Positions 1 to 60,581 of a DNA stretch of 64,000 bases are shown in pieces (the first letter of the stretch is position 1; the number at the start of each line of letters is the position of its first letter). The DNA is from Streptomyces sp. NBC_01803. Its GTDB lineage: Bacteria; Actinomycetota; Actinomycetes; Streptomycetales; Streptomycetaceae. The notes beneath the pieces were generated by a model. The model was not told the DNA's origin. It did not search any database and saw nothing but the letters and a program-made list of their open reading frames with translations. The stretch spans positions 992,001 through 1,056,000 of the forward strand of contig NZ_CP109073.1 of NCBI RefSeq assembly GCF_035917415.1. The letters are read 5' to 3'. A program made the position numbers and the translations under genes.

Positions 1-3000
1 CGTTCGGCGGGAATGGCCGCCGTGTCGCGGTGCCCGACGACGACGGCCGCCGTGCCGCGCACCAGATCCAGCACGGCGGGCCGCCGCCCGGTCTCGGGCA
101 GCTCGGTCAAGCTCCGCACAAAGGGCGGCACTTCGGCACCGGCCCCGTCCGCGCCTCCGGGTGTGCTCGCGTCGGCCGTCGCGTCGATCGCGGCCCGCGC
201 CTCCGGCAGGTCGGACAGCAGCGGGCTGGGCCGCAGCAGGGTGAAGGAGGGAGCGAAGCGTTCCCATGTGACATCCGCGACCGTCACGTTGGTCTCGTCC
301 GCGTCGAGGGCGGCGCGCAGCGCGGTCAGCGCGGACTCCGGGGGCAGGGCGGGCAGACCGCGCTGCCTCAGCCGGTCCTCGGCGCCGGTGTCCGTGACCA
401 TACCGCCGTCGGCCCACGGCCCCCAGGCGATGGCGGTGGCGACCAGCCCCCGTGCCCGGCGCTGTTCGGCCAGCGCGTCGAGGGCGGCGTTGGCGGCGGC
501 GTAGGCGGCCTGACCTCCACTCCCCCACACGCCCGCGATGGAGGAGAAGAGGACGAAGGCGTCCAGCGGCCGGTCGGCCAGCAGTTCGTCCAGATGCGCG
601 GCACCGGTCGCCTTGGCGGCCAGCACGGCGGCGAACTCGTCGGCGGTGGTGTCGGCCAGCATCCCGGGCGTGCCGACCCCGGCGGCGTGCACGACGGCCG
701 TGAGGCCGTCACCGATCCGGTCGAGCAGCGCGGCGACGGCGTCCCGGTCGGCCATGTCGCAGGCGGCGACGGTGACTCGCGCGCCCAGGCCCTCCAACTC
801 GGCGGTGAGCTCGGCGGCGCCCTCGGCGTCCGGACCGCGCCGACTGGTGAGGACGAGGTGTTCGACGCCGTTCGCGGCCAGGCAGCGGGCGACATGCCCG
901 CCCAGCGCGCCCGTTCCGCCGGTGACCAGCACCGTGCCGCGCGGGGCGGTGGTGTCCGGGGTCTGCGGGGCGTGCGGTGCGCGGATCAGTCTGCGGACGT
1001 ACACGCCCGAGGTCCGGATGGCGAGTTGGTCCTCGGGCGCGGCGCCCGAGGTGAGCACGGAGGTGAAGCGGCGGGCGGCGCGTTCGTCCAGCGTGGCGGG
1101 CAAGTCCACGAGTCCGCCCCAGCGTTGTGGGTGTTCGAGGGCGGCGACCCGGCCCAGCGCCCAGGTCTGGGCCTGCGCCACGGTGGCGGGCGGGTCGGAC
1201 GGGCCGATGGACACCGCGCCGCGCGTCGCGCACCACAGGGGCGCGTCGATGCCCGCGTCGCCGAGTGCCTGGATCAGCGTGAGGTTGGCCAGCAGCCCGG
1301 CCGGTGCCACCGCGCCCCGGGTGGGGTGCGGCTTCTCGTCGAGGGCGAGGAGTGACAGCACGCCGTCGACGGTCCCGGTGACGGCGGCGAGTTGGGCGGC
1401 AAGCGTGGCGCGGTCCGTTCCCGGGGCGACGGCCAGCGGGACGACCCCGGCGCCCCGGTCCTGGAGCACGTGGACGACGGCGGACGTCCAGGGGTCGTCC
1501 TCCCAGTCGGCGGGCAGCGCGGCGAGCCAGGCGCGGCCGGTCGGCTCGGCCGTGCCGAGCGCGGGGGCGGGGGCGGGGGCGGGCTTCCAGGCGACGCGGT
1601 AGCGCCAGCCGTCGACGGTGGTCCGCTCGCGACGTCGGCGGCGCCAGGTGGACAGGGCGGGGAGCACGGCGGGGAGCGTGGCGTCGCCCGGGAGGTGAAG
1701 GTGCTCGGTGAACGCCTCCAGGTCCTCGCGTTCGACGGTGGCCCAGAAGTCGGCCTCCGCCGGCTCACTGTCGCCCGGCGCGTAAGGACGTTCGCCGGGT
1801 GGGGTCGTGGGGTCCAGCCAGTAGCGCTTTCGTTGGAAGGCGTAGGTGGGCAGGGAGACGGGCCGGGCGCCGGTTCCGGCGAGCACGTCCGCCCAGCCGA
1901 CCGGCACTCCGTGAACGTGCAGCTCGGCCAGGGCCGTTGTGACGGACAGACGCTCCGGCCGATCCTTCCGCAGGACGGGAACCACGGCCGCCGACTCGTC
2001 CACCAGCTCCCGCGCCAACGCGGCGAGGGTGCCGCCGGGGCCGATCTCGGCGAACGCGGTGACGTTCCGGTCGGTCAGGGCCTGCACGGCGTCGGCGAAG
2101 CGGACCGGCTCCCGGATCTGCCGCACCCAGTAGTCCGGGGCGGTCAGCTCCTCATCCGCCACCAGGCGACCCGAAAGGGTCGAAACGACAGGCAACGTGG
2201 GCGCGTGGAACACCACCGACTCCAGCTCCGCACGGAACGCGGCCAGCATCGGCTCCATCAACGGAGAGTGAAAAGCATGCGACACCGCCAGCCGCCTGCC
2301 CCTCAGCCCGGCCGTCACCTCACCCACAGCCGACGCATCCCCCGACACCACCACCGAAGCAGGACCATTCACCGCGGCGATACTCACCCGATCCCCGAAA
2401 CCCGCCAGCAACGGCACCACATCACTCTCCGACGCCGCAACCGCCACCATCACCCCACCCGCGGGCAACTCACCCATCAACCGCCCACGCGCCACCACCA
2501 GACGAACCGCATCCCCCAACGAGAACACCCCCGCCACACAAGCCGCCGCGAACTCCCCCACCGAATGCCCCGCCACCACATCAGGCCGCACACCCCACGA
2601 CCCCAGCAACCGGAACAACGCCACCTCAACCGCGAACAACCCCACCTGCACAAACCCCGTACCGCCAAGCCCCTCCCCCTCCCCCCCGAACACCACACCC
2701 CGCAACGACCGACCCAACAAGGCATCCGCATACGCGCACACCTCATCAAAAGCATCCGCGAACACCGGAAACACCCCATACAACTCCCGGCCCATCCCCA
2801 CCCACTGACTCCCCTGCCCCGAAAACAAGAACGCCGTCTTCTTGCCCTTGCGCCGCGCGACGCCCTGGATGTCGAGGTGTTCGAGGCCGCGCAGCAGTTC
2901 GTCACGGTCGGTGCCGGTGACCGCGGCGCGGTGGGGCAGGGCGGCGCGAGTGGTGGCCAGCGAGAGCGCGATGTCGGCGGGGTCGAGGTCGGGCCGGCCA

Positions 3001-4496
3001 GTCACGAACGCACGAAGGCGTGCGGCTTGTTCGCGCAGCGCGTCGGCGTTGTGGGCCGAGAGCAGCCAGGGCACGGGACACGGCTCGGCGGCGGGAGCGG
3101 ACGCCTCCGGCGCGTTCCGCGGCTCCGCCTCCAGGATCACATGGGCGTTGGTGCCGCTGACGCCGAAGGACGAGACGGCGGCCCGGCGCGGGTGGCCGTT
3201 CTCCGCCCAGGCGACGGGCTCGGTCAGCAACCGGACTGTCCCCGCCGACCAGTCCACGTGCGGCGACGGCTCGTCCGCGTGCAGCGTGCGCGGCAGCAGC
3301 CCATGCCGCATCGCCATGACCATCTTCATGACGCCACCCACCCCGGCGGCGGCCTGCGTGTGCCCGATGTTCGACTTCAACGACCCCAGCCACAGGGGCC
3401 GTTCGGCCGGGCGGTGTTGTCCGTAGGTGGCGATCAGCGCCTGGGCCTCGATCGGGTCACCCAGCGACGTGCCCGTGCCGTGCGCCTCCACCGCGTCCAC
3501 ATCGGCCGCAGACAGCCCGGCGTTCGCCAACGCCTGACGAATGACGCGCTGTTGGGCGGGGCCGTTGGGCGCGGTCATGCCGTTGGAGGCACCGTCCTGG
3601 TTGATCGCGGAGCCGCGCACCACGGCCAGCACGCGGTGCCCGTTGCGCCGGGCATCGGACAGCCGCTCCACGAGCAGCACGCCCACGCCCTCGGACCAGC
3701 CGGTGCCGTCGGCGCCGGCCGCGAACGCCTTGCATCGGCCGTCCGGCGCGAGGCCGCGCTGCCGACTGAACTCCATGAAAGCACCGGGCGTCGACATCAC
3801 GGTGGTGCCGCCGACCAGTGCCATCGAGCATTCGTCGCGGCGCAGTGCCTGGGCCGCGAGGTGCAGGGCGACCAGCGACGACGAGCAGGCGGTGTCCACG
3901 GTCACGGCCGGGCCTTCGAGGCCGAAGACGTAGGCGAGGCGGCCGGAGATCACGGCCGCGATGTTGCCGATGCCCAGGTATCCGTCGCAGTCGTCCGGTG
4001 ACGCGGACAGGCGCGCGTAGTCCTGCCCGCTGTTTCCGGCGAACACGCCGGTGCGGGAGCCGCGCAGCGTCGTCGGGTCGATCCCGGCCTGCTCGAACAC
4101 CTCCCATGCCACTTCCAGCAGAAGCCGCTGCTGGGGATCGGTCGCCAGCGCCTCGCGCGGCGAGATCCCGAAGAATTCGGCGTCGAATTCCGGTGCGTCG
4201 TAGAGAAATCCGCCCTCGCGTGCGTAACAGGTACCGGGCCGCGACGGATCCGGGTCGTAGAGCCCGTCGAGGTCCCAGCCCCGGTTCTCCGGGAACGGGC
4301 CGATGGCGTCCCGCCCGCTCGCCACCAATTCCCAGAGGTCTTCCGGGGATCGGACGTCTCCGGGAAAGCGGCAGCTCATTCCGACGATGGCGATCGGCTC
4401 ACGGGAGGCGTCCGTGAGGTGCTGGTTCTCTCGCCGCAGGCGCTCCGTCTCCTGCAGCGAAGCCCGCAGTGCCTGAATGAGGCGGTCGTCAGACAT
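1..4496 (-). CDS. Type I PKS gene 5, partial: module 11 (KS-AT-KR-ACP)
   Basis: The gene runs off the left edge, so 1,498 residues are visible. It opens with a short coiled-coil docking segment (residues 5-30, [16 protein letters not shown]). Then come KS (about 32-455, Cys204 in DTACSSS), AT (about 552-885, Ser645 in GHSVGE, HAFH motif, so malonyl-CoA), a dimerisation element (about 905-950) and KR (NADPH motif GGTGALG near 1190, catalytic Tyr1332). The window ends in the first part of the ACP, before its serine. The KR has Trp1324 and no LDD motif, the A1-type fingerprint, so a hydroxyl is expected. There is no DH. The module should add one CH(OH)-CH2 unit to the chain received from gene 4. 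The ATG lies 12 nt after GGGAG; an in-frame TTG at 4502 would sit 6 nt from the same GGGAG, so the true start may be two codons earlier. More modules or a thioesterase may follow beyond base 1. Confidence 0.95.
2095..2837 (-). repeat. Homogenised AT tract, copy in module 11
   Basis: About 743 bp of the malonyl AT, near-identical to copies at 22988, 28133, 33672, 38946 and 45258. Landmarks at both ends keep the same spacing, so there is no net insertion or deletion. Confidence 0.9.
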
Positions 4497-4527
4497 GGTC
4501 AAGGTGTGCTCCCTGTTCAGGCGTTCG

Positions 4528-19797
<15,270 letters not shown>

Positions 19798-19840
19798 ACG
19801 TGATCGGTTCCTCATCGGGCCGAGGGTGTGCCGTGGGTGT

Positions 19841-19873
19841 GCCGAGGGGCAGCCGAGGGGCAGCCGAGGGGCA
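19841..19873. repeat. Three perfect 11-bp direct repeats between PKS genes 3 and 4
   Basis: The unit GCCGAGGGGCA occurs three times in a row in the 147-bp gap between the gene 3 stop and the gene 4 start, with related GTGCCGTGGGT sequence just before it. No promoter or hairpin is obvious. It may be simple slippage or may affect translation of gene 4. Confidence 0.9.
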
Positions 19874-19944
19874 GCGGGTGTCCGCAGGGGGAGGGGGTGT
19901 TCGGTGCTTGTCAGCGCGTGCGGAGGTCCGCCGGCGCCTGTGGC

Positions 19945-30567: not shown

Positions 30568-30643
30568 CAGGGGTGCCCCTTACCGAAAGAGGTGAGTGTG
30601 GGGGGCGGAAATGGCCGGGCCGGCTGGAGCCCGGCCGATTCCG

Positions 30644-45600: not shown

Positions 45601-48600
45601 CAACCGCCACCATCACCCCACCCGCGGGCAACTCACCCATCAACCGCCCACGCGCCACCACCAGACGAACCGCATCCCCCAGCGAGAACACCCCCGCCAC
45701 ACAAGCCGCCGCGAACTCCCCCACCGAATGCCCCGCCACCACATCAGGCCGCACACCCCACGACCCCAGCAACCGGAACAACGCCACCTCAACCGCGAAC
45801 AACCCCACCTGCACAAACCCCGTACCGCCAAGCCCCTCCCCCTCCCCCCCGAACACCACATCCCGCAACGACCGATCCAAAAAGGTGTCCGCACACGCGC
45901 ACACCTCATCAAAAGCATCCGCGAACACCGGAAACACCCCATACAACTCCCGGCCCATCCCCACCCACTGACTCCCCTGCCCCGAAAACAGGAACGCCGT
46001 ACGGCCACCGGGAACGGCGGTTCCGCGCACCAGGCCGGGGGCGTTCTCGCCTCGGGCGAGGATCTGGAGTCCGCTGATCAACTCGGCGCGTTCCGTACCC
46101 AGGACGGCCGCGCGCGTTTCGAGGGTGGCGCGGGTGGTGGCGAGGGACAGTCCGATGTCGGCGGGTCGGGCGTCGAGGTGCTGGTCGAGGTGGGTGAGGA
46201 GCCGCTGTGCCTGGGCGCGCAGGGCGGTGGTGTCCTTGGCCGAGAGTGGCCAGATCACCGGGAGTCGCTCGGCCGCCGGACCGTCGTGGGCGTCGTGGAT
46301 CTCCTCGGCGGGGGTGGTGTCGTCGGGGGCCTGTTCGACGATGATGTGGGCGTTGGTGCCGCTGACGCCGAACGACGACACGCCAGCTCGGCGCGGGTGG
46401 CCGTTCTCCGCCCAGGCGACGGGCTCGGTCAGCAACCGGACCGTCCCCGCCGACCAGTCCACGTGCGGCGAGGGTTCATCGACGTGCAGGGTGCGCGGCA
46501 GCAGCCCGCCGCGCATCGCCATCACCATCTTGATCACTCCGCCGACCCCGGCGGCGGCCTGCGTGTGCCCGATGTTCGACTTCAACGAGCCCAGCCACAG
46601 GGGCCGTTCGGCGGGACGCTCCTGGCCGTAGGTGGCGATCAGGGCCTCGGCCTCGATCGGGTCACCCAGCGACGTGCCCGTGCCGTGCGCCTCCACCGCG
46701 TCGATATCCGCCGGCGTCAGGCCCGCGCTCGCCAACGCCTTCCGGATGACGCGCTGTTGCGACGGGCCGTTGGGCGCGGTGAGGCCGTTGGACGCGCCGT
46801 CCTGGTTGATCGCGGAGCCGGGAATGAGGGCGAGCACGTGGTGGCCGTTGCGGCGGGCGTCGGAGAGGCGTTCCAGCATCAGCATGCCGACGCCCTCGCC
46901 CCAGCCGGTGCCGTCGGCGCCGGCGGCGAACGCCTTGCAACGGCCGTCCGGCGCGAGGCCGCGCTGCCGGCTGAATCCGACGAAGGCGCGGGGGCTGGAC
47001 ATGACGGTGACACCGCCGGTAAGGGCCAGGGAGCATTCGCCCTGCCGCAGGGCCTGGGCCGCGAGGTGGAGGGCGACGAGCGACGACGAGCAGGCGGTGT
47101 CGACGGTCACGGCCGGGCCTTCGAGGCCGAACGTGTAGGCGAGGCGGCCGGACACCACGCTGGCGGCGCGGCCGGTGAGGAGGTAGCCCTCGACCGCGTC
47201 GGGCACCTGATGGAGCAGCCCGGAGGCGTAATCCTGGGCGTAGTCCTGGCCGTTGGAGCCGATGAAGACGCCGGTGCCGCTGCCGCGCAGCGTCGCCGGG
47301 TCGATGCCGGACCGCTCGAACAGCTCCCAGGCGACTTCGAGGAGCAGCCGCTGCTGGGGGTCCATGGCGAGTGCTTCGCGCGGGGAGATCCCGAAGAACG
47401 CGGCGTCGAACTCGCCCGCGTCGGGCAGGAAGCAGCCTTCGCGGACGTAGCTGGTGCCGGGGTGTTCGGGGTCGGGGTCGTAGAAGGCGTCCAGGTCCCA
47501 GCCGCGCCCGGTGGGGAAGGTGCCGATGGCTTCGCGACCGTCGGTGAGCAGCCGCCACAGGTCTTCGGGTGAGCGGACGTCGCCGGGAAAGCGGCAGCTC
47601 ATGCCGACGATGGCGATCGGCTCGTCGTCGCGCGGCGGTTGGCCTCCCGTCGCCGACGTGCCCGTCACGGCCGCCATGGCCGGGTCGGCCGGGTCGGCGG
47701 GCCGCTGTTCGTGGCCGGCGATGCGCGTGTGCAGATAGCCGGCGAGGCCGGTGGGGGTCGGGTGGTCGAAGACGACGGTCGTCGGGAGCCGGGTACCGGT
47801 GGCGGCGGACAGGCGGTTGCGGAGCTCGACGGCGGTGAGCGAGTCGAACCCGGCCTCGCGGAACGCCTTTCCGGGCTGGACGGCTTCCAGTCCGGGGTGG
47901 CCGAGGACGGCGGCGGCCTCGGCGCGGACGAGATCCACGACAGCGCGGGCGCGTTCGGCGGCGGGCAGCGCTGCCAGCCGCTGGGCAAACGGGGATTCGC
48001 CGCCCGCCTCGGGGACGGCGGTGGTGTCCTGGCCGTTGATGTGCTGTCGCGCTTCGGGGAGTTGGCCGAGGAGGGCGGGGGCGAGCGTGGGGGCGTACCG
48101 CTTCCAGTCGATGTCGGCGACGGTGACGGCGGTGTCGTCCTGGTCGATGGCGCGGCGCAGTGCCTGGACGGCCCGCTCGGCGGCCATGGGCAGCAGGCCG
48201 CGCCGCCGGGCGCGTTCCTCGACGGCGTCGGTGACCAGGCCGCCGGTGCCCCACGATCCCCAGGCGATCGAGGTGGCGCGCAGGCCCCGGGCGCGGCGGT
48301 ACTGGGCCAGGGCGTCGAGATAGGCGTTGCCGGCCGCGTAGCCGCCCTGGCCGCCGTTGCCGACGACGCCGGAGAGGGAGGAGAAGAGGACGAACAGGTC
48401 CAGGTCGTCGCGGTCGGCGGTGAGTTCGTGCAGGTTGCGGGCGGCTTCGACCTTGGGTCGGAGCACGTTGTCGAGCCGGTCGGGGGTGAGCGCGTCGAGG
48501 ACGCCGTCGTCGAGCGTTCCGGCGGAGTGGATCACGCCCGTGAGGGGGTGCTCGGTGGGCAGGTCGGCCAGCAGGTCGCGCAGCGCGTCACGGTCGGCTG

Positions 48601-51600
48601 CGTCGCAGGCGGTGATGGTCACCCGGGTGCCGTGGGCCTCCAGTTCGGCCCGCAGCTCTTCCGCGCCGGGCGCGGCGGGGCCGCTGCGGCTGGTGAGGAG
48701 CAGGTGGTCGGCTCCCTCCGCCGCCAGTCGGCGGGCGACGTGAGCGCCGATGGAGCCGGTGCCGCCCGTGATGAGGATGGTGCCGGTCGGCCGCCAGTCG
48801 GGGCGTCGTGGCGTGCTCGCGGGGGCGCGGACGAGGCGGCGGACGAAGACGCCCGTCGGGCGTACGGCCGTCTCCCGCTCGTCTCCGGAGTGGGCGAGGA
48901 TTCCGGCGAGTCGGGTCAGGGCGCGGGAGTCCAGGTCGTCCGGCTCCGGCAGGTCGATGAGGCCGCCCCAGCGTTGCGGCTGCTCCAGGGCGATGACGCG
49001 CCCCAGGCCCCAGAGTTGGGCCTGTGCTGGGTCGCGGACGGGGTCGGCCGGTCCGGTGGAGACGGCGCCGGAGGTGAGGCACCACAGGGGTGCGGCGATG
49101 TCGGCGTCGCCGAGCGCCTGGGCGAGGATCACGGTGCCGTCGAGGGCCGTCGACACCGGGCGGCCGGGAAGGAGTTCGCCGTCGAGGGCGAGCAGGGACA
49201 CGACGCCCGCGCTGTCGGCGCTTGCCGACTCGCGCAGCCGCTCGGCCAGTGCGGCGCGGTCGTCGGCCGGGGAGACGGTGACGGTCGTGACGCTGGTGCC
49301 GTGGCCGGTCAGGGCGCGGCGGACGGCGTCGACCGTGGCGTGGTCGGTGTGCCGTTCGGGAACGGCGATGACCCAGGTGCCGGTTGGCGCGGGGTGGTTG
49401 CCGGAGCTCAGGGGCTGCCAGGTGACGCGGTAGCGCCAACTGTCGGCGGCGGAACGCTCGGTGGTCTCGCGGTGCCAGCGGGAGAGGCCGGTGACGAGGT
49501 CACCGAGCGAGGCGTCGGCGTCGGGGTCGAGGGCGAGGGCGGTGGCCAGCTCGGGCAGGTCCTGGCGGGCGACGGCGTCCCAGAATTCGGCTTCTTCGGC
49601 CGAGGTCGTGGCCGTGGCGCCGGCGGTGGCGGCGGGGCTTTCGGGGGCGAGCCAGTAGTGGCGGCGTTGGAAGGGGTAGCTGGGCAGGTCGACGGGCTGG
49701 GCCGGCCAGCCGGTCATCAGCGCGGGCCAGTCGACATCGGCCCCGGCCGTGTGGGCCTCACCGAGGGAGAGCAGGAACCGTTTCGCGCCACCCTCCCCGC
49801 GCCGCAGCGTCGCCACCGCCCTCGCGCTCTCCGCCCCGGCGGCCTCGAACGTCTCCTGGAGGCCGACCGTCAGCACCGGATGCGGACTGACCTCCACGAA
49901 CACCGAGTGACCCTCGTCCAGCAGACGGCGCGCCACCTCCTCGAACCGCACGGTCCGCCGCAAGTTCTGGTACCAGTAGGCGGCGTCCAACGGAGCGTCG
50001 ACGGGTTCGCCGGTGACCGTGGAGTAGAACGCGACCTCGGGTGTCGCGGGCGTGATCCCGGCCAGGACATCGGCCAGTTCGGCTTCGATTTCTTCGACGT
50101 GGGGGCTGTGGGAGGCGTAATCCACAGGAACCCGCCGCACCCGCAGACCATCCCCCTCACACACCGCGAGGAAATCCTCCAGCGCGTCCGCGTCACCCGA
50201 CACCACCACCGACGCCGGACCATTCACCGCCGCCACACCCAACCGCCCACCCCAACCCGCCACACGCACCCGCACATCCGCCTCAGACGCGGCCACCGAC
50301 GCCATCCCCCCACGCCCCGCCACCCGCGCCAGCAGACGACTGCGCAACGCCACCACCCGCGCCCCGTCCTCCAACGACAACGCACCCGCCACACAAGCCG
50401 CCGCGATCTCACCCTGCGAATGCCCCACCACCGCCGCCGGCACCACACCCGCGGCACGCCACACCTCGGCCAGCGACACCATCACCGCCCACAACACCGG
50501 CTGCACCACCTCAGCCGCCTCCAGCACCGGCGCACCCGCAACCCCCCGCAGCACACCCTCCAGCGACCACCCCACATACGGAGCCAACGCCGCCTCACAC
50601 GCCGCCATCCACTCCCGGAACAACGCCGACGAATCCAGCAACCCCACCGCCATCCCCGCCCACTGCGAACCCTGACCGGGAAAGACAAAGACGACGGCCT
50701 GTTCGGGGTCGGCGGCTCCCCGCACGAGGTGCGACGCGGTGCGGCCCTCGGCCAACGCGCGCAGAGCGTCCGCGAGTTCGTCGCGGTCGGTGCCAACGAC
50801 CACGGCCCGGTGCTCGAACATCGCCCGCGACGTCACCAACCCCCGCGCCACCCCGACCGGATCACCCTCCAGCACCCCCGCCACCCGACCCGCCAGCTCC
50901 CCCAACGCCTCCACCGAACGAGCCGACACCACCAACGGCACAACCACCGGATCCAGCAACCGCGGAACGCCCCCCACCACCGGCCCCACCACATCCGCAT
51001 CCGGCGCCTGCTCGATCACCGCATGGGCGTTGGTCCCACTGATCCCGAACGACGACACCCCCGCCCGACGCGGACGCCCACCCTCCGACAGCCAAGGCAC
51101 CGACTCCGTCAGCAACCGCACCCCACCCACCGACCAATCGACGTGCGGCGACGGCTCGTTGACGTGCAGCGTGCGCGGCAGAACGCCATGGCGCATCGCC
51201 ATGACCATCTTGATGACCCCACCCACTCCGGCGGCGGCCTGGGCGTGCCCGATGTTCGACTTCAACGACCCCAGCCACAACGGCCGTTCGGGGGACCGCT
51301 CCCGCCCGTACGTGGCGAGCAGCGCCTGCGCCTCGATCGGATCACCCAGCCGGGTACCCGTGCCGTGCGCCTCCACCACGTCCACATCCGACGCCGACAA
51401 CCCGGCATTCGCCAACGCCGACCGGATAACGCGCTCCTGCGCCGGTCCGCTGGGCGCGGTGAGCCCGTTCGACGCGCCATCCTGGTTGATCGCCGTCCCA
51501 CGCACCACCGCCAGCACCCGATGCCCATTACGCCGGGCATCGGACAGCCGCTCCAGCAGCAACATCCCCACGCCCTCCGCGACGCCGAAGCCGTCCGCCG

Positions 51601-52417
51601 CCGCCGAAAACGCCTTGCACCTGCCATCCGGCGCGAGCCCGCGCTGCCGGCTCATCTCCATGAACAGGCCCATCGACGACATGACGGTCGCGCCCCCGGT
51701 CAGGGCCATCTCGCATTCGCCCGTGCGGAGCGCCTGAACGGCCAGGTGGAGGGCGACCAGTGACGACGAGCAGGCGGTGCCGACCGTCACCGCGGGGCCT
51801 TCGAGGCCAAGGGTGTAGGCGATGCGGCCGGACGCGACACTGGTGTTGTTGCCGGTGACCAGGTAGCCCTCCAGCTCCTGTCCCGGCTCCTGCATGAGGG
51901 GGCCGTATTCCTGCGAGAGGATGCCGATGAAGGTGCCGGTGCCGCTGCCGCGCACGGCCCCCGGGTCGATGCCCGCCCGCTCGAACACCTCCCACGCCGT
52001 CTCCAGCAACAACCGCTGCTGCGGATCCATCGCCAACGCCTCACGCGGCGAAATCCCGAAAAACTCCGCGTCGAAACCGGCCGCCTCCCCCAACAACCCC
52101 GCCTCACGCTGGTAATACCGACCCGAAGCCGCCGGATCAGCGTCATACAGCCCCGCCACATCCCAACCACGATCGGCCGGCAACGGACCCACCACGTCAA
52201 CGCCGTCCGCGACGATGCGCCACAGCCGTTCGGGACTGTCGGCCTGGCCGGGAAAACGGCAGCTCATGCCGACGATGGCGATCGGCTCGGAGTCCCTGGC
52301 CTCGGCGTCGCGCAGCCGCCGCCTGGTCTGCTTGAGATCGGCGGTGACGCGCTTGAGGTAGTCCAGGAGCTTCCGCTCGCCCGGCTGGTTGCCCTGCTGG
52401 TTCTCGTCGTCTCGCAT
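30644..52417 (-). CDS. Type I PKS gene 2: modules 2, 3, 4 and 5
   Basis: A very large protein of 7,257 residues. Module 2: KS (from 42, Cys216), AT (Ser667, YASH, methylmalonyl), dimerisation element, B1-type KR (LDD, Tyr1360), ACP (Ser1526). Module 3: KS (from 1600, Cys1776), AT (Ser2231, HAFH, malonyl), DH (His2529, Asp2702; HxxxSxxxxP), ER ([13 protein letters not shown] near 3136), KR (Tyr3475), ACP (Ser3646), which should reduce fully to CH2-CH2. Module 4: KS (Cys3887), AT (Ser4335, malonyl), DH (His4635), KR (Tyr5229), ACP (Ser5401). Module 5: KS (Cys5636), AT (Ser6093, malonyl), DH (His6393), KR (Tyr6963), ACP (Ser7131). Modules 4 and 5 should each make a double bond. Docking coils sit at both ends ([28 protein letters not shown]). 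I start at the ATG at 52417, where the docking coil begins; the frame stays open upstream but overlaps gene 1 and is not PKS-like there. Confidence 0.97.
31441..32894 (-). repeat. Homogenised DH/KR tract, copy in module 5 (1,454 bp)
   Basis: Same tract with four 18-bp hexapeptide units (32408-32479). The match to module 4 continues to about 32957, and the match to module 6 starts at about 31109. Confidence 0.9.
33672..34409 (-). repeat. Homogenised AT tract, copy in module 5
   Basis: Same AT tract, about 738 bp. Both flanks diverge: the linker on one side and the post-AT segment around 33480-33600 on the other are private to module 5. Confidence 0.9.
35055..35569 (-). repeat. Homogenised KS tract, copy in module 5
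   Basis: Same 515-bp KS tract at the same spacing, with a longer divergent centre (about 35270-35440) whose codons end more often in C. Confidence 0.8.
36643..38153 (-). repeat. Homogenised DH/KR tract, copy in module 4 (1,511 bp)
   Basis: Same tract with seven 18-bp hexapeptide units (37613-37738), the longest array of the four. Length differences between the four tracts are fully explained by unit number plus one 3-bp difference (VPVGAPG versus VPGPGG). Confidence 0.9.
38946..39688 (-). repeat. Homogenised AT tract, copy in module 4
   Basis: Same 743-bp AT tract. The match extends into the KS-AT linker to about 39840 (shared with module 7) and through the post-AT linker to about 38680 (shared with modules 6 and 7). 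Confidence 0.9.
40302..40816 (-). repeat. Homogenised KS tract, copy in module 4
   Basis: Same 515-bp KS tract at the same spacing, closest to the module 7 copy. Confidence 0.85.
45258..46000 (-). repeat. Homogenised AT tract, copy in module 3
   Basis: Same 743-bp malonyl AT tract, placed inside an otherwise distinct fully reducing module. The flanking sequence is unrelated to the other copies and has more codons ending in C. Confidence 0.9.
49691..51640 (-). repeat. Long KS-AT repeat of module 2, shared with module 1
   Basis: About 1.95 kb covering the second half of KS, the linker and the methylmalonyl AT. It matches 55261-57205 at a constant offset of 5,570 bp (5,567 after one 3-bp change). 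Within it, bases 49992-50080 and 50693-50750 diverge without changing length. A further matching patch lies at about 51965-52200. Confidence 0.88.
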
Positions 52418-52443
52418 GTCGTGTGTACCCACCCTCGGAACGC

Positions 52444-55400
52444 TCACTGGGCTTCGAGTTCCTGATCCACCAGGTCGAAGATGTCGTCGATGGTCGCCGT
52501 GTCGAGCCGCTGATCGGCGTCGTCCTCCGTGTCCCCGTCGAGCCTGGCCAGGACGGTGCGCAGGCGGGCACGGACGCGGTGGAGCACGGCGGTGTCGTCG
52601 GCTCCGATGCCGTCGAGGACGGATTCCAGCCGGTCGATCTCGTTGAATACGGCGGTTGGTACGGTCGGCGCCGGGGACCGGTCCTGGTCCGGTTCCGGTG
52701 GCGCGAGTTGGGTGCGCAGCCGCTCGGCCACCGCGACCGGGGTCGGGCAGTCGAACATGAGCGTCGCGGGCAGCCGCAGCCCGGTCGCCGTGCCGAGGCG
52801 GTTGCGCAGCTCGACCGACATCAGCGAGTCGAAGCCTGCGGCCTTGAACTCCCCGTCTCGCGGGACTCGTTGAGGGCCGGTGAAGCCCAGGACCGCGGCG
52901 GCGTGGGTGCGGACGAGGTCGAGCAGGACCCGTTCCTGCTTGGGCTGGGCGAGTCCGGCCAGCCACTGCCGGAGGGCGACCGCGTCGCCGGGTCCGCCGC
53001 GCGCGGCACGCGCGGCACGCGGCGCGGACGACGTGCGGACGACATCGCGGAGGATCGGCGGAACGGCCGCTCCGGCGGCGGCAGTCGTGAAACGGGCCGC
53101 GACGGTCACGGCCTCGGCGGAGGTCCAGGCCGCGTCGAACAGCGCCAGTCCTTCCGCCGCGTCGAAGGGTGCCATGCCGGACTGCGCGAGGCGGGCCACG
53201 TCGGCGGCGTGCAGTTGGGTGGCCATGCCGAGGCCGTTCCACAGGCCCCAGGCGATCGACGTGACGGGCAGGCCGTCCGCGCGCCAGCGCTGTGCCGCCG
53301 CGTCCAGGTAGGCATTGGCGGCGGAGTAGTTGCCCTGGCCGCCGTTGGTGAAGGTCGCGGCGGACGAGGAGAAGAGGATGAAGGCGGCGAGGTCGAGGTG
53401 TCGGGTGAGCTCGTAGAGGTGGAGCGTGGCGTCGACCTTGGGGGTCAGCACGTGCGACAGCCGCGCGGGGGTGAGTGCCTCGATGACGCCGTCGTCGCGC
53501 AGTCCGGCGGTGTGGACGACGGCCGCCGGGGGGTGTGCGGCGAGGAGCCGGGCCAGGGCGTCGCGGTCGGCGGTGTCACAGGCGGCGATGGTGATGTCGG
53601 CGCCGTGGGCGGCGAGTTCGGCGCGCAGCTCGATGGCGCCTTGGGCGTCCGGGCCACGCCGGCTGACCAGCAGCAGGCGCCGCGCGCCGTGCTCGGTCAC
53701 CAAGTGCCGTGCCACGAGGGCACCAAGACCGCCCGTGCCGCCGGTGATCAGGATGGTGCCCTCGACGGGCACGCTCCGCTCCGGGCCGGCCGGGCCCTCC
53801 GCCGCCGGGACGCGCTCCAGGCGCGGGACTAACGCGGTGTCCCGCCGGAGCGCCATCTGCGGTTCGTCACCCGCCAGATGGCCCGGCAGCGCGGCCCACG
53901 CGGTGTCGCCGCCGTCCCAGTCCACCAGCACGAACCGCCCCGGGTGCTCCGACTGCGCCGACCGCACCAGCCCCCATACGGCGGCCTGGGCGAGGTCGGT
54001 CGGCCGCTCGCCGGGCGCGGCGGCGACCGCGCCACGGGTGGCGAGCACCAGCCGGGAGGCGGCGAGCCGTTCGTCGGCGAGCCAGGCCCGCAGCAGTGCC
54101 AGGGCGTGCGCGGTCGCGGCGTGCGCGTGCGGCGCGTCGTTCCCACCCGGGGGCAGGGGAATGACGACCACCTCGGGCGGTGCGGCGCCGGAGTCGAGGG
54201 CGGTGGTCAACGCGGCCAGGTCGTCGTACCGTTCGACGCGCTCACCGGAGGCCGGGCCGGACACGGGAACGGCGGTCCAGGCGACGCGGTGCGCGACGGC
54301 GGTCTGCCCCATCCCGATATCGGCCGGCAACGGCCGCAGGCCCAGGGACTCCACGCGGACGACCGGCCGTCCGGCCGTGTCGGTGGCGTCCAGGGAGACC
54401 GCGTCGTCCGCGCGACGGGAAAGCCTTATACGGAGTGTGGCCGGACCGCCCGCATCGGTCGTCCCGGACACCAGGAACCGGGCGCCGGTCCACGAGAACA
54501 GCATGCGTCCCCGGCCGGTGTCCGGCAGCAGGCCGCCGATGGCGATGCCGTGCAACGCGGCGTCCAGCAACGCGGGATGGACGCCGAACCCGGCCGCGTC
54601 CGTGCCCTCGTCCAGCGCCACCTCGGCGAACACCTCGCCGTCGCCCTGCCACAGCCCACGCAGGCACTGGAACGCGGGGCCGTAGTCGATGCCCAGGGCG
54701 ATGTGGTGGGCGTAGCAGTCGTTCACAGGAACGGGCCGCGCGCCGGGCGGCGGCCACGCTCCGGGCTCCGGGTCCGCCTCGTCCGGTGCGGTGTCGGCCG
54801 CCGCCGGAGTCAGCGTTCCGGACGCGTGGTTGGTCCACGGCTCGGCCGTGGTGGCGCCGTCAGGGCGGGAGTCGATCCGCACCGGCCGCCGTCCGGACGT
54901 GTCGGCCGCGCCGACGCTCACCTGAACGTGATGGGCGGCGCCCTCGGTGAGCACCAGCGGCGCCGACAGGGCGAGTTCCTCGACCCGGTCGCACCCCAGG
55001 TCCTCGGCGGCGCGCAGGGCGAGGTCGAGGTAGGCGGTGCCGGGAACGACGACCGTGCCCTTCACCCGGTGGTCGGCCAGCCAGGGGTGGTCGGTCAGCG
55101 AGAGACGTCCGGTCCACACCGTGCCGGCGCCGTCCGGCAGCGGGATGGCCGCTGCCAACAGCGGGTGGCCGGTGCGCCGGAGGCCGATCCCGGCGGGATC
55201 GTGAGCCGGGGTCGCGGCCAGCCAGTAGTGGCGGCGTTGGAAGGGGTAGGTGGGCAGGTCGACGGGCTGGGCCGGCCAGCCGGTCATCAGCGCGGGCCAG
55301 TCGACGTCGGCCCCGGCCGTGTGGGCCTCACCGAGGGAGAGCAGGAACCGTTTCGCACCGCCCTCCCCGCGCCGCAGCGTCGCCACCGCCCTCGCGCTCT

Positions 55401-58400
55401 CCGCCCCGGCGGCCTCGAACGTCTCCTGGAGGCCGACCGTCAGCACCGGATGCGGACTGACCTCCACGAACACCGAGTGGCCCTCGTCCAGCAGACGGCG
55501 CGCCACCTCCTCGAACCGCACGGTCCGCCGCAAGTTCTGGTACCAGTAGGCGGCGTCCAACGGGGTATCGGTCATGCCGTCGATCACCGTGGAACGGAAC
55601 GGCACCCGCGGTGACCGTGGACTGATGGTGCCGAGGGCCGTGATCAACTCGGCTTCGATTTCTTCGACGTGGGGGCTGTGGGAGGCGTAATCCACAGGAA
55701 CCCGCCGCACCCGCAGACCATCCCCCTCACACACCGCGAGGAAATCCTCCAGCGCGTCCGCGTCACCCGACACCACCACCGACGCCGGACCATTCACCGC
55801 CGCCACACCCAACCGCCCACCCCAACCCGCCACACGCACCCGCACATCCGCCTCAGACGCGGCCACCGACGCCATCCCCCCACGCCCCGCCACCCGCGCC
55901 AGCAGACGACTGCGCAACGCCACCACCCGCGCCCCGTCCTCCAACGACAACGCACCCGCCACACAAGCCGCCGCGATCTCACCCTGCGAATGCCCCACCA
56001 CCGCCGCCGGCACCACACCCGCGGCACGCCACACCTCGGCCAGCGACACCATCACCGCCCACAACACCGGCTGCACCACCTCAGCCGCATCCAGCACCGG
56101 CGCACCCGCAACCCCCCGCAGCACACCCTCCAGCGACCACCCCACATACGGAGCCAACGCCGCCTCACACGCCGCCATCCACTCCCGGAACAACGCCGAC
56201 GAATCCAGCAACCCCACCGCCATCCCCGCCCACTGCGAACCCTGACCGGGAAAGACAAAGACGGGGCGAACGCCGGGGCGCGCGGTGCCCAGAGCCGTAT
56301 CGGGAGCCGGCCGACCATCCGCCAACGCGCGCAGAGCGTCCGCGAGTTCGTCGCGGTCGGTGCCAACGACCACGGCCCGGTGCTCGAACATCGCCCGCGA
56401 CGTCACCAACCCCCGCGCCACCCCGACCGGATCACCCTCCAGCACCCCCGCCACCCGACCCGCCAGCTCCCCCAACGCCTCCACCGAACGAGCCGACACC
56501 ACCAACGGCACAACCACCGGATCCAGCAACCGCGGAACGCCCCCCACCACCGGCCCCACCACATCCGCAACCGGCGCCTGCTCAATCACCGCATGGGCGT
56601 TGGTCCCACTGATCCCGAACGACGACACCCCCGCCCGACGCGGACGCCCCTCCGACAGCCAAGGCACCGACTCCGTCAGCAGCCGCACCCCACCCACCGA
56701 CCAATCGACGTGCGGCGACGGCTCGTTGACGTGAAGGGACCGGGGAAGCACTCCGTGCCGCAGCGCGAGGACCGTCTTGATGACTCCCGCGACCCCGGCG
56801 GCGGCCTGGGCGTGCCCGATGTTCGACTTCAACGACCCCAGCCACAACGGCCGTTCGGCGGACCGCTCCCGCCCATACGTGGCGAGCAGCGCCTGCGCCT
56901 CGATCGGATCACCCAGCCGGGTACCCGTGCCATGCGCCTCCACCACATCCACATCCGCCGCCGACAACCCGGCATTCGCCAACGCCGACCGGATAACACG
57001 CTCCTGCGCCGGTCCACTGGGCGCGGTGAGCCCGTTCGACGCGCCATCCTGGTTGATCGCCGTCCCACGCACCACCGCCAGCACCCGATGCCCATTACGC
57101 CGGGCATCGGACAGCCGCTCCAGCAGCAACATCCCCACGCCCTCGGCCAGTCCGAAGCCGTCCGCCGCCGCCGAAAACGCCTTGCACCTGCCATCCGGGG
57201 CCAGGGCCCGCTGCCGGCTGAACTCCACGAGCATCCCGGGCGTGGGCATGACGGTCGCGCCCCCGGCCAGCGCGAGCCCGCATTCACCGCCGCGCAACGC
57301 CTGAACGGCCAGGTGCAGCGCGACCAGTGACGACGAGCACGCCGTATCGACGGTGACGGCCGGACCCTCCAGCCCGAACGTGTAGGCGAGGCGGCCGGAC
57401 GCGACACTGGCGGCGTTGCCCGTAAGTAGGTAGCCCTCCAACTCGGCCGCCGCCTCGTGCAGTCGGGGTCCGTAGTCGGCAGCCATGGCCCCGACGAACG
57501 TGCCGGTGCCGCTGCCGCGCACGGCCCCCGGGTCGATGCCCGCCCGCTCGAACACCTCCCACGCCGTCTCCAGCAACAACCGCTGCTGCGGATCCATCGC
57601 CAACGCCTCACGCGGCGAAATCCCGAAAAACTCCGCGTCGAAACCGGCCACCTCCCCCAACAACCCCGCCTCACGCTGGTAATACCGACCCGAAGCCGCC
57701 GGATCAGCGTCATACAGCCCCGCCACATCCCAACCACGATCAGCCGGCAACGGACCCACCACGTCAACGCCGTCCGCGACGATGCGCCACAGGTCCTCCG
57801 GCGAACGGACCCCGCCCGGCAGGCGGCAGCTCATCGCGACGATCGCGATCGGCTCGTCCGACGCCACCCCCCGTACTCTCCCGGTCCCGGTCCCGGTCCC
57901 GGCCCCGAGCCCGAGCCCGGCCAAGGCCGCGTCGTCGTACCACCCGAACGCCTCGGCGACGATGCGGCGGGCGAGGGCGCCCGGGGTGGGGTGGTCGAAG
58001 ACGACGGTGGGCGGGAAAGCCAGACCGGTCGCCTGGGCGAGGCGGTTACGCAGCTCGACGGCGGTCACGGAGTCGAGGCCCAGGGCGCGGAACGTACGCC
58101 CGTCACCCAGCCGGTCACGGTCGCCACGGCCACCCCCGCCACCACCGCCACCACCACCGCCGGCCAGCAGACCAGCGGTCACATCGAGGACCAACGAGTA
58201 GGCCACGGCGTCCCGTTCGGCCTCGGGCAGCGCGGCGAGGCGGTCCCGGAACGACTCTTCGACGGCCGTCTCCGCCCGGCGACGCCGGAAGGCGTAGCCG
58301 GGCAGCGGGACGCGGCGGGCGCCCGTGCCGGCGAACGCCGGGGACCAGTCCACATCGGCGCCGAGCACGTGCGCCTCGGCGAGGGCGGTCAGCAGCCGTT

Positions 58401-60246
58401 CCGTCCCGTCCTGGCCACGGCGCAGGGTGCCGATCGCGTGGGCCGAACGCCCGGCGGCCGTCGCGGTGTCCTGCATGGCGGCGGTCAGCACCGGGTGCGG
58501 GCCGATCTCGACGAGCGTGCCGTGCCCGTCCGCCAGCAGGGCGCCCGTGAGCCGGTCGAACAGCACCGGATCGCGGAGCGTGCGGTACCAACGGTCGGCG
58601 GTGAGTTCGCAGCCGTCGATCGGGCCGCCGATGGCGGAACTGTAGAGGGGAACGCGGGCGGTGACCGGCCGCACGGGGGCGAGGTCGGCCAGCAGGCGGT
58701 CGCGGATGCGAGCGATGTGCGGGGAGTGCGCGGCGAGGCTGACGGCGATGCGGCGGACCCGGTAGCCGTCGGCCTTCAGCTCGGTGACCAGCTCGTCGGC
58801 GGCGTCCCCGTCGCCCGAAACGATCACGGCGGCGGGCCCGTTGACCACGGCGAGGGCGAGCCGTCCGTGCCAACGGCCCAGCCGGGCCTGCACCTCGTCG
58901 GCGGAGGCGGCGACCGTGACCATGCCGCCCCGGCCGGCGAGAGTGGCCTGCGCCTGACTCCAAAGGGCCACGACGCGCGCGGCGTCGGCGAGGGTCAGGG
59001 CGCCGGCCACGTGGGCGGCGGCGATCTCGCCGCCGCTGTGGCCGGCCACCGCGGCGGGCCGCACCCCGTACGCGCACAGCGTTCCCGCGAGGGCCACCTG
59101 AAGGCCGAACAGCGCGGGCTGCACGACGTCTTCGGCCGTCAGCGGCGGCGCGCCGGAGGTGCCGCGCAGGACATCGGTGAGGGACCAGTCGACGAACGGA
59201 GTCAGGGCCTGCTCGCATTCCTCGACCAGACCGCGGAACACCGGGGAGGATTCGAGGAGTCCGGCTCCCATGCCCGGCCACTGACCGCCGGCCCCGGAGA
59301 AGACGAACGCGACGCCGCCCCCCGCCGCGTCCGGGCCCGTGCTCCGGCCCGTGCCCGTGCCCGTGCCCGGACTCACGCCGCGCACCACGTTCGGGGCGAA
59401 ACCACTGTGCGCCGCGGCGTCGAGGCCGGCCAGCAGCTCGTCCCGGCCAGTGCCGATGACGACGGCGCGGTGGGGGAAACGGGTCCGGGTGGTGGCCAGC
59501 GAGAGGCCGATGTCGGCGGGCGTGGCGGCCGGGTGGGCGGTGACGTGGGCGCGGAGCCGCCGTGCCTGGGCGCGCAGGGCGTCGGGCGTCCCGGCGGTGA
59601 CGATCCACGGCAGCGGGACATCCGCGTCGGCCGCCGCCGCGACGCCGGCCTCCCCGGCCCTCTCGGCCGCCTCGGTCGCCTCGGGAGCGGGCGGCGACGC
59701 GGCGCCGAACACGTATGCTTCATCGGCGAGTTCGGCGTCATCGGCGTCATCGGCGTCATCGGCGTCATCGGCGACCGGTTCGCCGGTCAGCACCCGCCAC
59801 ACCACATCCCCGTCCGCGACGGCCCGGCGCAGCGGCTTGAGCACGACGACCTCGGCGGCGTCCGCGTGGTCGCCGCCCGCGGAGCCCCCGACGAGCGCCC
59901 ACGCGATATCGCCGCTCCGCAGTGCCCGGCAGGCGGCGTCGAGGGCCGCGCGGCGCGACGGATGGTCGCCGTCGACGGTGGAGCCGGGTGGGAGGAGAGC
60001 GAGGACGGCCCGCCGCCGGCTGGGGTCGAGCGCGTCGAGGTGGACACCCACGCGGGCCGCCGGGGAGGCGGCGGGCACCAGCCCGGCGTTCTCCACGGCC
60101 CGCCACAGGAGCTCCAGCAGCAGATCTTGACGGGGATCGGGTGGGAGGGTCCCGTCCGCCGGGAGTCCGAAGAACTCGGCGTCGATGCCCGCGGCTTCGG
60201 GATGGCCGTGGGCCGAGCCGACGACGGCGATCGCGTTTTCGCTCAT
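52444..60246 (-). CDS. Type I PKS gene 1: loading module and module 1
   Basis: This 2,600-residue protein should start the assembly line. Residues 1-190 are a shortened KS-like segment: [27 protein letters not shown] and [14 protein letters not shown] match KS landmarks, but the DTACSSS nucleophile and the His-containing half are gone. Then come the loading AT (Ser404 in GHSGGE; Trp429 in ALWSQ where extender ATs have Arg; LAAHS instead of YASH or HAFH) and an ACP (Ser726). Module 1: KS (797-1222, Cys970), AT (Ser1420, YASH, methylmalonyl), DH (His1726, Asp1895), KR (Tyr2307, RDD near the LDD site, B-type), ACP (Ser2474). A docking tail ([10 protein letters not shown], then [11 protein letters not shown]) follows. 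The product should be an alpha-methyl enoyl chain on an unknown monocarboxylic starter. GGAG lies 7 nt before the ATG at 60246, which fixes the start. Confidence 0.96.
55261..57205 (-). repeat. Long KS-AT repeat of module 1, shared with module 2
   Basis: Partner of the module 2 repeat. The divergent islands lie at 55562-55650 and 56263-56320. A further matching patch is at about 57528-57780, over the start of the KS. Confidence 0.88.
58129..58162 (-). repeat. Poly-glycine run in the loading AT-ACP linker
   Basis: A CCACCG-type repeat encodes 11 consecutive glycines between the loading AT and its ACP. It probably acts as a flexible tether. Confidence 0.85.
59734..59769 (-). repeat. In-frame 9-bp repeat in the loading KS remnant
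   Basis: Four 9-bp units (GGCGTCATC on the plus strand) encode Asp-Asp-Ala four times, around residue 160 of gene 1, between the KS remnant and the loading AT. Confidence 0.9.
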
Positions 60247-60581
60247 GTAAGTGCTCCAACAACCCATCAGATAACCGTCAAACGATGTGGGGGGCTGCGC
60301 ACGCGGCGCTCAGGTGATCGGTCGGGGTGGGATTCGGCACGTCGGATCCCCCGCGGCGGCCTCGCCGGGCGGGGCCTCGCCGGGCGGGGGCCTCGGCGGG
60401 CGCTGTTGCGGAACGGGCGGACGCGCGGTGTCGCGCGTCGGCCGCGGTGATCCGGGTGCGGCCGGAAACGGTCAGATGGCGATGCTGACGGCGGACGAAG
60501 GCGAGGGACCGCCTCGGCGGGCGCCGCCGGGGCGGTAGGCCGGCGCCGATGGCCGGCCGGGGACTGGAGAGTCCGGAAGAG

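What the first reader, a model, noticed from the sequence alone, without database searches (positions are those of the whole stretch)
1..60246. Assembly line predicting a methyl-branched tetraene/pentaene polyol with an unusual tail
Module order and domains give R-CH=C(CH3)-CH(OH)-CH(CH3)-CH2-CH2-(CH=CH)4, then a methylmalonyl unit, then three A-type hydroxyl units. A fully reduced C2 unit between a methylated allylic alcohol and the polyene is a combination I cannot match to a polyene macrolide I know. The product may be new, but part of the cluster is outside the window.
Basis: partly seen in the sequence, partly recalled or inferred. Interest (0 to 1): 0.75.

Follow-up and report, generated by a model that had tools for sequence, protein, structure and literature searches.

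The report
Lavencidin-like polyene assembly line, extended
This Streptomyces gene cluster encodes a known style of polyene ring-maker that seems to have remodelled itself by copying pieces of one of its own modules, so it should make a related, probably undescribed compound with a longer tail and one double bond fewer in its light-absorbing part.

Summary
The minus strand encodes a modular type I polyketide synthase; stretches fetched to the left complete it: six PKS genes, a loading module, 14 extension modules, terminal thioesterase, type II thioesterase, ABC transporter. It departs in two places: an extra methylmalonyl-DH-KR module (M1) before lad module 1, and an enoylreductase in M3 (lad module 2). 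Trees place M1's DH-KR-ACP (UFBoot 100/98) and M3's ER (93) among lad-line module 12 sequences, and the g1/g2 docking pair resembles the module 12/13 joint. The line was probably lengthened and reduced by copying module 12. Four lad-type clusters recovered from other genomes (one with broken frames) lack both changes. No P450 or LuxR gene lies nearby. Predicted product: unglycosylated 28-membered tetraene hexaol with a but-2-en-2-yl tail, C34H56O8. The searches made found no such compound, but the library is partial. New variant of a known kind; structure and activity untested.

The parts
52444..60267 (-). g1: loading module M0 (KS remnant-AT-ACP) and extension module M1 (KS-AT(mm)-DH-KR-ACP), C-terminal docking domain; 2607 aa
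57868..60267 (-). M0 loading module: KS remnant with no TACS, HGTGT or KSQ motif, starter AT, ACP
   Evidence: N-terminal part 75% identical to S. specialis and 41, 48 and 36% to three lad-like loaders
52669..57861 (-). M1, the extra module; KS-AT 92% identical in DNA to M2, DH-KR-ACP of module-12 descent
30644..52417 (-). g2: M2 (mm, KR), M3 (DH-ER-KR), M4, M5 (DH-KR); start codon inferred at 52417 from the docking helix
41324..47614 (-). M3: lad module 2 equivalent carrying an ER related to module 12 ERs
19945..30567 (-). g3: M6, M7 (DH-KR); LadA2 equivalent
4528..19815 (-). g4: M8 (mm, DH, KR), M9, M10 (A-type KR); LadA3 equivalent
1..4502 (-). g5, the part inside the window: M11; the gene runs on to -6762 (L003) with M12 (DH-ER-KR); LadA4 equivalent, 3754 aa
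60268..61347 (.). about 1.1 kb without a convincing gene upstream of g1, probable promoter region; right edge of the cluster

Best explanation
A lavencidin-type (lad) macrolide assembly line that was lengthened and reduced by copying parts of module 12. A starter acyl (probably acetyl) is loaded by M0; M1 adds a methyl-branched alkene; M2 makes the alcohol on which the thioesterase later closes; M3 gives CH2-CH2; M4-M7 a tetraene; M8-M14 the polyol with methyls at C14 and C2. Macrolactonisation at C27 gives an unglycosylated 28-membered tetraene hexaol with a but-2-en-2-yl tail, C34H56O8, exact mass 592.3975, perhaps exported by the adjacent ABC transporter. Shown: genes, domain order, motifs, homology, trees. 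Inferred: starter, stereochemistry, DH8 silent and DH3 active, ring size, export, and the order of the copying events.
For: Domain order complete to the TE. Loading-module homology including the KS remnant. g3-g6 of 3540/5095/3754/3469 aa against LadA2-A5 of 3636/5133/3767/3375 aa. In S. specialis, 13 of 18 parsed segments best-match the syntenic module at 73-83%. In four lad-type clusters M2 and M8-M14 are each closest to the syntenic module, at 61-69%. M1 DH-KR-ACP inside the lad M12 clade: SH 0.993, UFBoot 100; sister to own plus S. specialis M12: 0.985, 98. M3 ER inside the lad M12 ER clade: SH 1.0, UFBoot 93, while M3's DH-KR-ACP falls with lad M3. The g1 C-dock and g2 N-dock resemble LadA4 C and LadA5 N. 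Formula check: a lad backbone ending in malonyl gives C30H48O8, the formula tabulated for takanawaene A among the cyclic pentaenes.
Against: No chemistry was seen. M3's DH has HxxxS, absent from 310 readable motifs. M8's DH keeps its other motifs and HxxxD is common (58 of 310), so its silence rests on homology with lad DH7. The M3-M7 equivalents of lad-type clusters do not best-match their syntenic modules. M1 and the M3 ER sit on long branches; by topology the copying predates the split from S. specialis, whose contig C49 joins the loading ACP to an M2-type module; that assembly also holds a chimeric contig, so this is unresolved. M1's KR alone is closest to unrelated PKSs at 69%. No UFBoot value was returned for the node joining M3's ER to the own M12 ER (SH 0.914). 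No pathway regulator was found nearby, so the cluster may be silent.
Confidence: 0.72

Rival explanations
1. M8's DH is active, so the chromophore is a methyl-branched pentaene (C34H54O7), with one hydroxyl fewer.
For: M8's DH is intact apart from HxxxD, and HxxxD occurs in 58 of 310 DH motifs and in module 4 of G198 and G063, where dehydration is expected.
Against: The orthologous DH7 of lavencidin keeps its motifs yet is not needed for the product (PMC12093942). KR8 lacks the LDD motif.
Confidence: 0.2
2. M1 and/or the M3 enoylreductase are passed over, and the cluster makes an ordinary lad-type pentaene (for example C31H50O8).
For: M3's DH HxxxS is odd. The g1 C-dock resembles the g5 C-dock, so hand-over may be leaky.
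Against: M1 keeps KS, AT, DH, KR and ACP motifs and the M3 ER its NADPH motif. Both stay in open frames although they have diverged far from module 12.
Confidence: 0.12
3. M1 and the M3 ER were present in an ancestor or came from another family, and the other lad-type clusters lost or never had them.
For: The branches are long. An ER in the second extension module also occurs in another PKS group (P0039, P0059, P0090).
Against: Those ERs fall outside the M12 clade. M1's half-module, its docking pair and the M3 ER all point to module 12 of the lad line. Four of four lad-type clusters parsed end to end lack both.
Confidence: 0.2

Closest known systems
Lavencidin / RKGS-A2215A (lad) cluster, Streptomyces lavendulae FRI-5 (PMC12093942, passages read; its sequence was not compared directly)
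   Same: Dead-KS loading module; methylmalonyl ATs at lad modules 1, 7, 13 (here M2, M8, M14), malonyl elsewhere; DH-ER-KR at module 11 (M12); DH-bearing methylmalonyl module 7 (M8); TE at the end; similar sizes of the last four PKS genes; a type II TE in the cluster.
   Different: One extra module (M1), carried with the loader on its own gene; ER in M3, so a tetraene rather than a pentaene; no P450 or LuxR gene nearby, so no evident route to the C14 carboxylate.
Streptomyces specialis GW41-1564 cluster (contigs C10, C41, C42, C49 and L005)
   Same: Orthologous modules at 73-83% identity, loading module, and the order of g3 to the start of g6 on contig C10.
   Different: Draft in pieces; tails of M1 and M3 not found, TE not searched; contig C49 joins the loading ACP directly to an M2-type module. 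Product unknown.
Takanawaenes (formulas from the table in PMC9740855, passages read)
   Same: Takanawaene A has the formula that a lad backbone ending in malonyl would give.
   Different: Listed as pentaenes; the product here would be a tetraene with a longer tail. Their structures were not read.
Reedsmycin (rdm), PMC6006980 (passages read)
   Same: Unglycosylated polyene-polyol macrolide built with methylmalonyl units at the starter end.
   Different: KSQ loader, 16 extension modules, ER in module 1, polyene next to the carboxyl end.
Aureothin/neoaureothin PKSs, PMC6718629 (passages read)
   Same: Related assembly lines that differ by inserted modules and docking pairs; post-AT linker named as a recombination hot spot.
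   Different: Different products; there the added modules lie on a separate gene, here the added joint resembles one of the same cluster.

Membership tests
lavencidin-type (lad) polyene macrolide cluster | Loading module with a KS that has lost its catalytic residues, plus AT and ACP | tested here: met
   lad description
lavencidin-type (lad) polyene macrolide cluster | Methylmalonyl ATs at modules 1, 7 and 13, malonyl in the others | tested here: met
   YASH/YGSH at M2, M8, M14 and HAFH in M3-M7, M9-M13; M1 is additional
lavencidin-type (lad) polyene macrolide cluster | 13 extension modules | tested here: not met
   14, the extra being M1; 4 of 4 lad-type clusters parsed have 13 (G283 with broken frames)
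lavencidin-type (lad) polyene macrolide cluster | Five DH-KR modules in a row (pentaene), ER only in module 11 | tested here: not met
   M3 has an ER; four DH-KR modules remain
lavencidin-type (lad) polyene macrolide cluster | P450, ferredoxin and GMC oxidoreductase for the C14 carboxylate; LuxR regulators | tested here: not met
   nearest P450 match about 47 kb and nearest LuxR-type match about 76 kb from the cluster; GMC and ferredoxin were not searched genome-wide, and none showed among the neighbours scanned. P450 and GMC are present in G198 and G553
lavencidin-type (lad) polyene macrolide cluster | Common descent of the modules | tested here: met
   syntenic best matches for M2 and M8-M14, S. 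specialis and trees
lavencidin-type (lad) polyene macrolide cluster | 28-membered polyene product | not testable with these tools
   predicted only
glycosylated polyene macrolides (nystatin/pimaricin kind) | Mycosamine genes and glycosyltransferase in the cluster (feature recalled) | tested here: not met
   none among the 20 neighbouring ORFs scanned; 12 of the 31 non-PKS ORFs were not scanned

The most novel reading that the evidence does not exclude
The assembly line extended itself by moving its own inter-protein joint: a half-module plus docking pair copied from the module 12/13 joint was set into the old first module, splitting the first gene, while the ER of the same copy went to M3. Two similar docking pairs (g1-g2 and g5-g6) now coexist, so g1 may also hand over to g6 (a short lactone) or g5 back to g2: a natural branched or looping line.
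Probability: 0.12. Interest if true: 0.8.

Novelty: new variant of a known kind. Interest (0 to 1): 0.5.

Why it matters
It names a concrete, checkable product (tetraene UV, m/z 615.387 as [M+Na]+) for a cluster with almost no tailoring genes. It also offers a natural before/after pair for how a modular PKS gains a module and an enoylreductase: the new joint lies at the post-AT linker ([10 protein letters not shown]) on one side and, less surely, in the first residues of a KS on the other, with a docking pair of the same kind as the module 12/13 joint. Inserting modules is hard in PKS engineering, so a natural insertion with a nameable source would be a useful guide.

Tried and rejected
Streptoglycerides of S. 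specialis 208DD-067 (PMC8781396, part 1 of 4 read): small tricyclic ketals, unrelated. S. marincola (PMC9096227, passages) and MP131-18 (PMC5301196, passages): a polyene cluster with low similarity to candicidin, and lagunapyrones; no module order was given to compare. RFCAC02 (PMC6554607, whole text): only cites takanawaenes. The eurocidin paper (PMC12843615, passages) was read for loading modules and not used further.

Plasmid records: 79 with a match, 0 covering 80% of the query; rows listed at 74-77% identity, generic PKS similarity. Formula and product searches: in the passages of PMC9740855 the cyclic-tetraene list has one nitrogen-free entry (C35H60O14); C34H56O8 plus macrolide 0 papers; lavencidin plus tetraene 0; 28-membered plus tetraene plus macrolide plus Streptomyces 1, a regulator review. 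The library lacks most subscription papers and MIBiG was not available, so a described product cannot be excluded.

The 11 Rfam ASpks hits fall one in each of M1-M11 and are read as KS coding sequence. Three genomes that matched the loading-module profile (G305, G147, G315) proved to be other PKSs when parsed; G463 was cut by a contig end and G192 was not fetched. I first took S. specialis contig C49 as proof that it lacks M1 (note) and dropped this because contig C41 of the same assembly runs M14 KS-AT, M13 KR-ACP, M14 KS, a repeat collapse. A donor outside the lad line for M1's half-module was sought: of the 120 listed of 3358 scored hits none exceeded 51% identity.
Full report
What is there. 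The window is G000:C1:992001-1056000 of a 5,847,022-base single-contig genome. It is taken as Streptomyces because G146, which carries the same 768-aa loading frame as the named S. specialis contig L005, is listed as same genus (inference). The PKS genes lie on the minus strand. I fetched stretches on both sides and joined them with the window. The set is g1 52444-60267, g2 30644-52417, g3 19945-30567, g4 4528-19815, g5 -6762 to 4502, g6 -17168 to -6759, a type II thioesterase at -17979 to -17161 and an ABC transporter at -20022 to -18007. Negative numbers are left of the window.

Domain order. Pfam scans of all 15 modules with AT, KR, DH and KS motifs give: M0 KS remnant-AT-ACP; M1 mm DH KR; M2 mm KR(LDD); M3 m DH ER KR; M4-M7 m DH KR; M8 mm DH KR; M9, M10, M11 m KR(Trp); M12 m DH ER KR; M13 m KR(Trp); M14 mm KR(Trp) TE. 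The motif rules are recalled general knowledge; the passages of the lad and rdm papers that I read use several of them.

Surroundings. To the right of g1 come about 1.1 kb without a clear gene, then DUF2630, a SpoU methylase and an ArsR-type protein. To the left of the transporter lie a PAP2-like protein (below Pfam's cut-off), a luciferase-like monooxygenase, a substrate-binding protein, an aldo/keto reductase and others. I scanned 20 neighbouring ORFs, the type II TE and transporter included: 19 of the 31 non-PKS ORFs listed and one. None was a glycosyltransferase, P450, GMC oxidoreductase or LuxR protein. The ORF list was filtered by codon-position GC and can miss genes. Whole-genome searches place the nearest P450 match at C1:924938 and the nearest LuxR-type match at C1:895769, about 47 and 76 kb from the transporter.

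Closest known line. Passages of PMC12093942 describe the lavencidin cluster: five PKS genes, a loading KS without catalytic residues, 13 extension modules, methylmalonyl ATs at 1, 7 and 13, seven DH domains with DH7 not needed for the product, ER only in module 11, and P450, ferredoxin and GMC genes proposed for the C14 carboxylate. M2-M14 here repeat this order, with the ER in M3 as the exception. g3-g6 measure 3540, 5095, 3754 and 3469 aa against LadA2-A5 with 3636, 5133, 3767 and 3375 aa. The N-terminal part of M0 with the KS remnant aligns with S. specialis (75%) and three lad-like loaders (41, 48, 36%).

Relatives. For S. specialis, 13 of 18 parsed segments best-match the syntenic module, from 73% (M6) to 83% (M10). 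The other five: the M5-tail segment (best hit M6 at 65%, then M5 at 74% over less length), an in-frame stretch before g6, the chimeric C41, and two segments of other PKSs (C46, C72). A profile of five loading modules found 4 of 394 family genomes at E <= 1e-40 and 9 of 392 genus genomes at E <= 1e-30; the window's own N-terminal 215 residues found 2 of 295. The own genome is counted in each. G198, G553, G063 and G283 carry lad-type clusters end to end (G283 with broken frames in its first PKS gene); 4 of 4 have no M1 and no ER in the M3 position. Their M2 and M8-M14 equivalents best-match the syntenic module at 61-69%; their M3-M7 equivalents do not, which fits the gene conversion seen among M4-M7 here. 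P0003 also lacks M1 and the M3 ER, and seven truncated proteins (P0024, P0041, P0065, P0066, P0076, P0097, P0101) lack M1. G198 and G553 have P450 and GMC genes upstream, and G553 a LuxR-type ATPase regulator.

Where the two differences come from. M1 and M2 share 92% DNA identity over 2.65 kb of KS-AT, in a mosaic of 68-100% blocks; identity stops at the post-AT linker [11 protein letters not shown]. The first 25 residues of the M2 KS are nearer to M13 KSs (76-80%) than to M1 (68%), a small sample. Behind the AT, M1's DH and ACP are closest to lad-line module 12 domains, also in a wider set; its KR alone is closest to unrelated PKSs at 69%. A tree of DH+KR+ACP from 62 modules places M1 inside the lad M12 clade, next to the window's and S. 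specialis's M12: SH 0.993 and 0.985, UFBoot 100 and 98. M3's DH-KR-ACP falls with lad M3, but its ER, among 33 ERs, falls inside the lad M12 ER clade: SH 1.0, UFBoot 93; nearest are the own and S. specialis M12 ERs (SH 0.914; no UFBoot returned for that node). The new protein joint has the same look: over 20 residues the g1 C-terminal docking helix is 80% identical to G553's LadA4, 65% to the own g5 and 55% to g3; over 28 residues the g2 N-terminal helix is 82% identical to LadA5 of G198 and G553, 71% to the own g6 and 61% to g4. The simplest reading is that a copy of the module 12/module 13 joint, with its docking pair, was set into the old first module, and that the same source supplied the M3 ER. 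One event or two cannot be told.

Timing. By topology the copying predates the split from S. specialis. In its draft, contig C49 runs from the loading ACP into a KS-AT-KR module like M2, and neither M1's tail nor a g2-type docking helix distinct from those of g3, g4 and g6 was found. But M3's tail was not found either, and contig C41 is a repeat chimera, so absence there is not established.

Product. With an acetyl starter, DH8 silent and DH3 active, the macrolactone is C34H56O8, 592.3975, with six free hydroxyls, 28-membered through C27. Lavencidin also has six hydroxyls. The acetyl starter, the silent DH8 and the ring closure are carried over from lavencidin. Two soft spots are DH3 (HxxxS, 0 of 310) and DH8 (HxxxD, as in 58 of 310).

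Novelty. The searches named under 'tried' found no tetraene of this kind in print, but the library is partial and MIBiG was not available. I rate it a new variant of a known kind. Insertion of modules at linkers around AT is discussed in PMC6718629 (passages); the added interest here is that the likely source can be named as another module of the same line and that its docking pair seems to have come along.

Noticed in passing
window 20179-41281 (M4-M7): KR domains of M4-M7 are 100% identical, with near-identical DNA tracts up to 3.2 kb, and the DH-KR linkers carry [14 protein letters not shown] repeats; signs of recent gene conversion.
   Followed up: partly
M13 and M14, left of the window (L002/L003): Their KR domains are 100% identical although the rest of the modules differ.
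   Followed up: no
window 3375-56901, 11 places, + strand: Rfam ASpks matches fall one in each of M1-M11; probably KS coding sequence, not an RNA gene.
   Followed up: partly
L002:5376-6719 (-): PAP2/haloperoxidase-like protein next to the ABC transporter, below Pfam's cut-off; link to the cluster unknown.
   Followed up: no
P0039, P0059, P0090: A separate group of PKSs with an AT-ACP loader and a DH-ER-KR second extension module (S. coffeae and others); may make another reduced polyketide family.
   Followed up: partly
L037 (S. specialis contig C41): Chimeric contig: M14 KS-AT, M13 KR-ACP, M14 KS; a warning for PKS reading from this draft.
   Followed up: yes
G198 and G063, module equivalent to M5: DH with HxxxD where dehydration is expected, so HxxxD does not by itself mean a dead DH.
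   Followed up: partly
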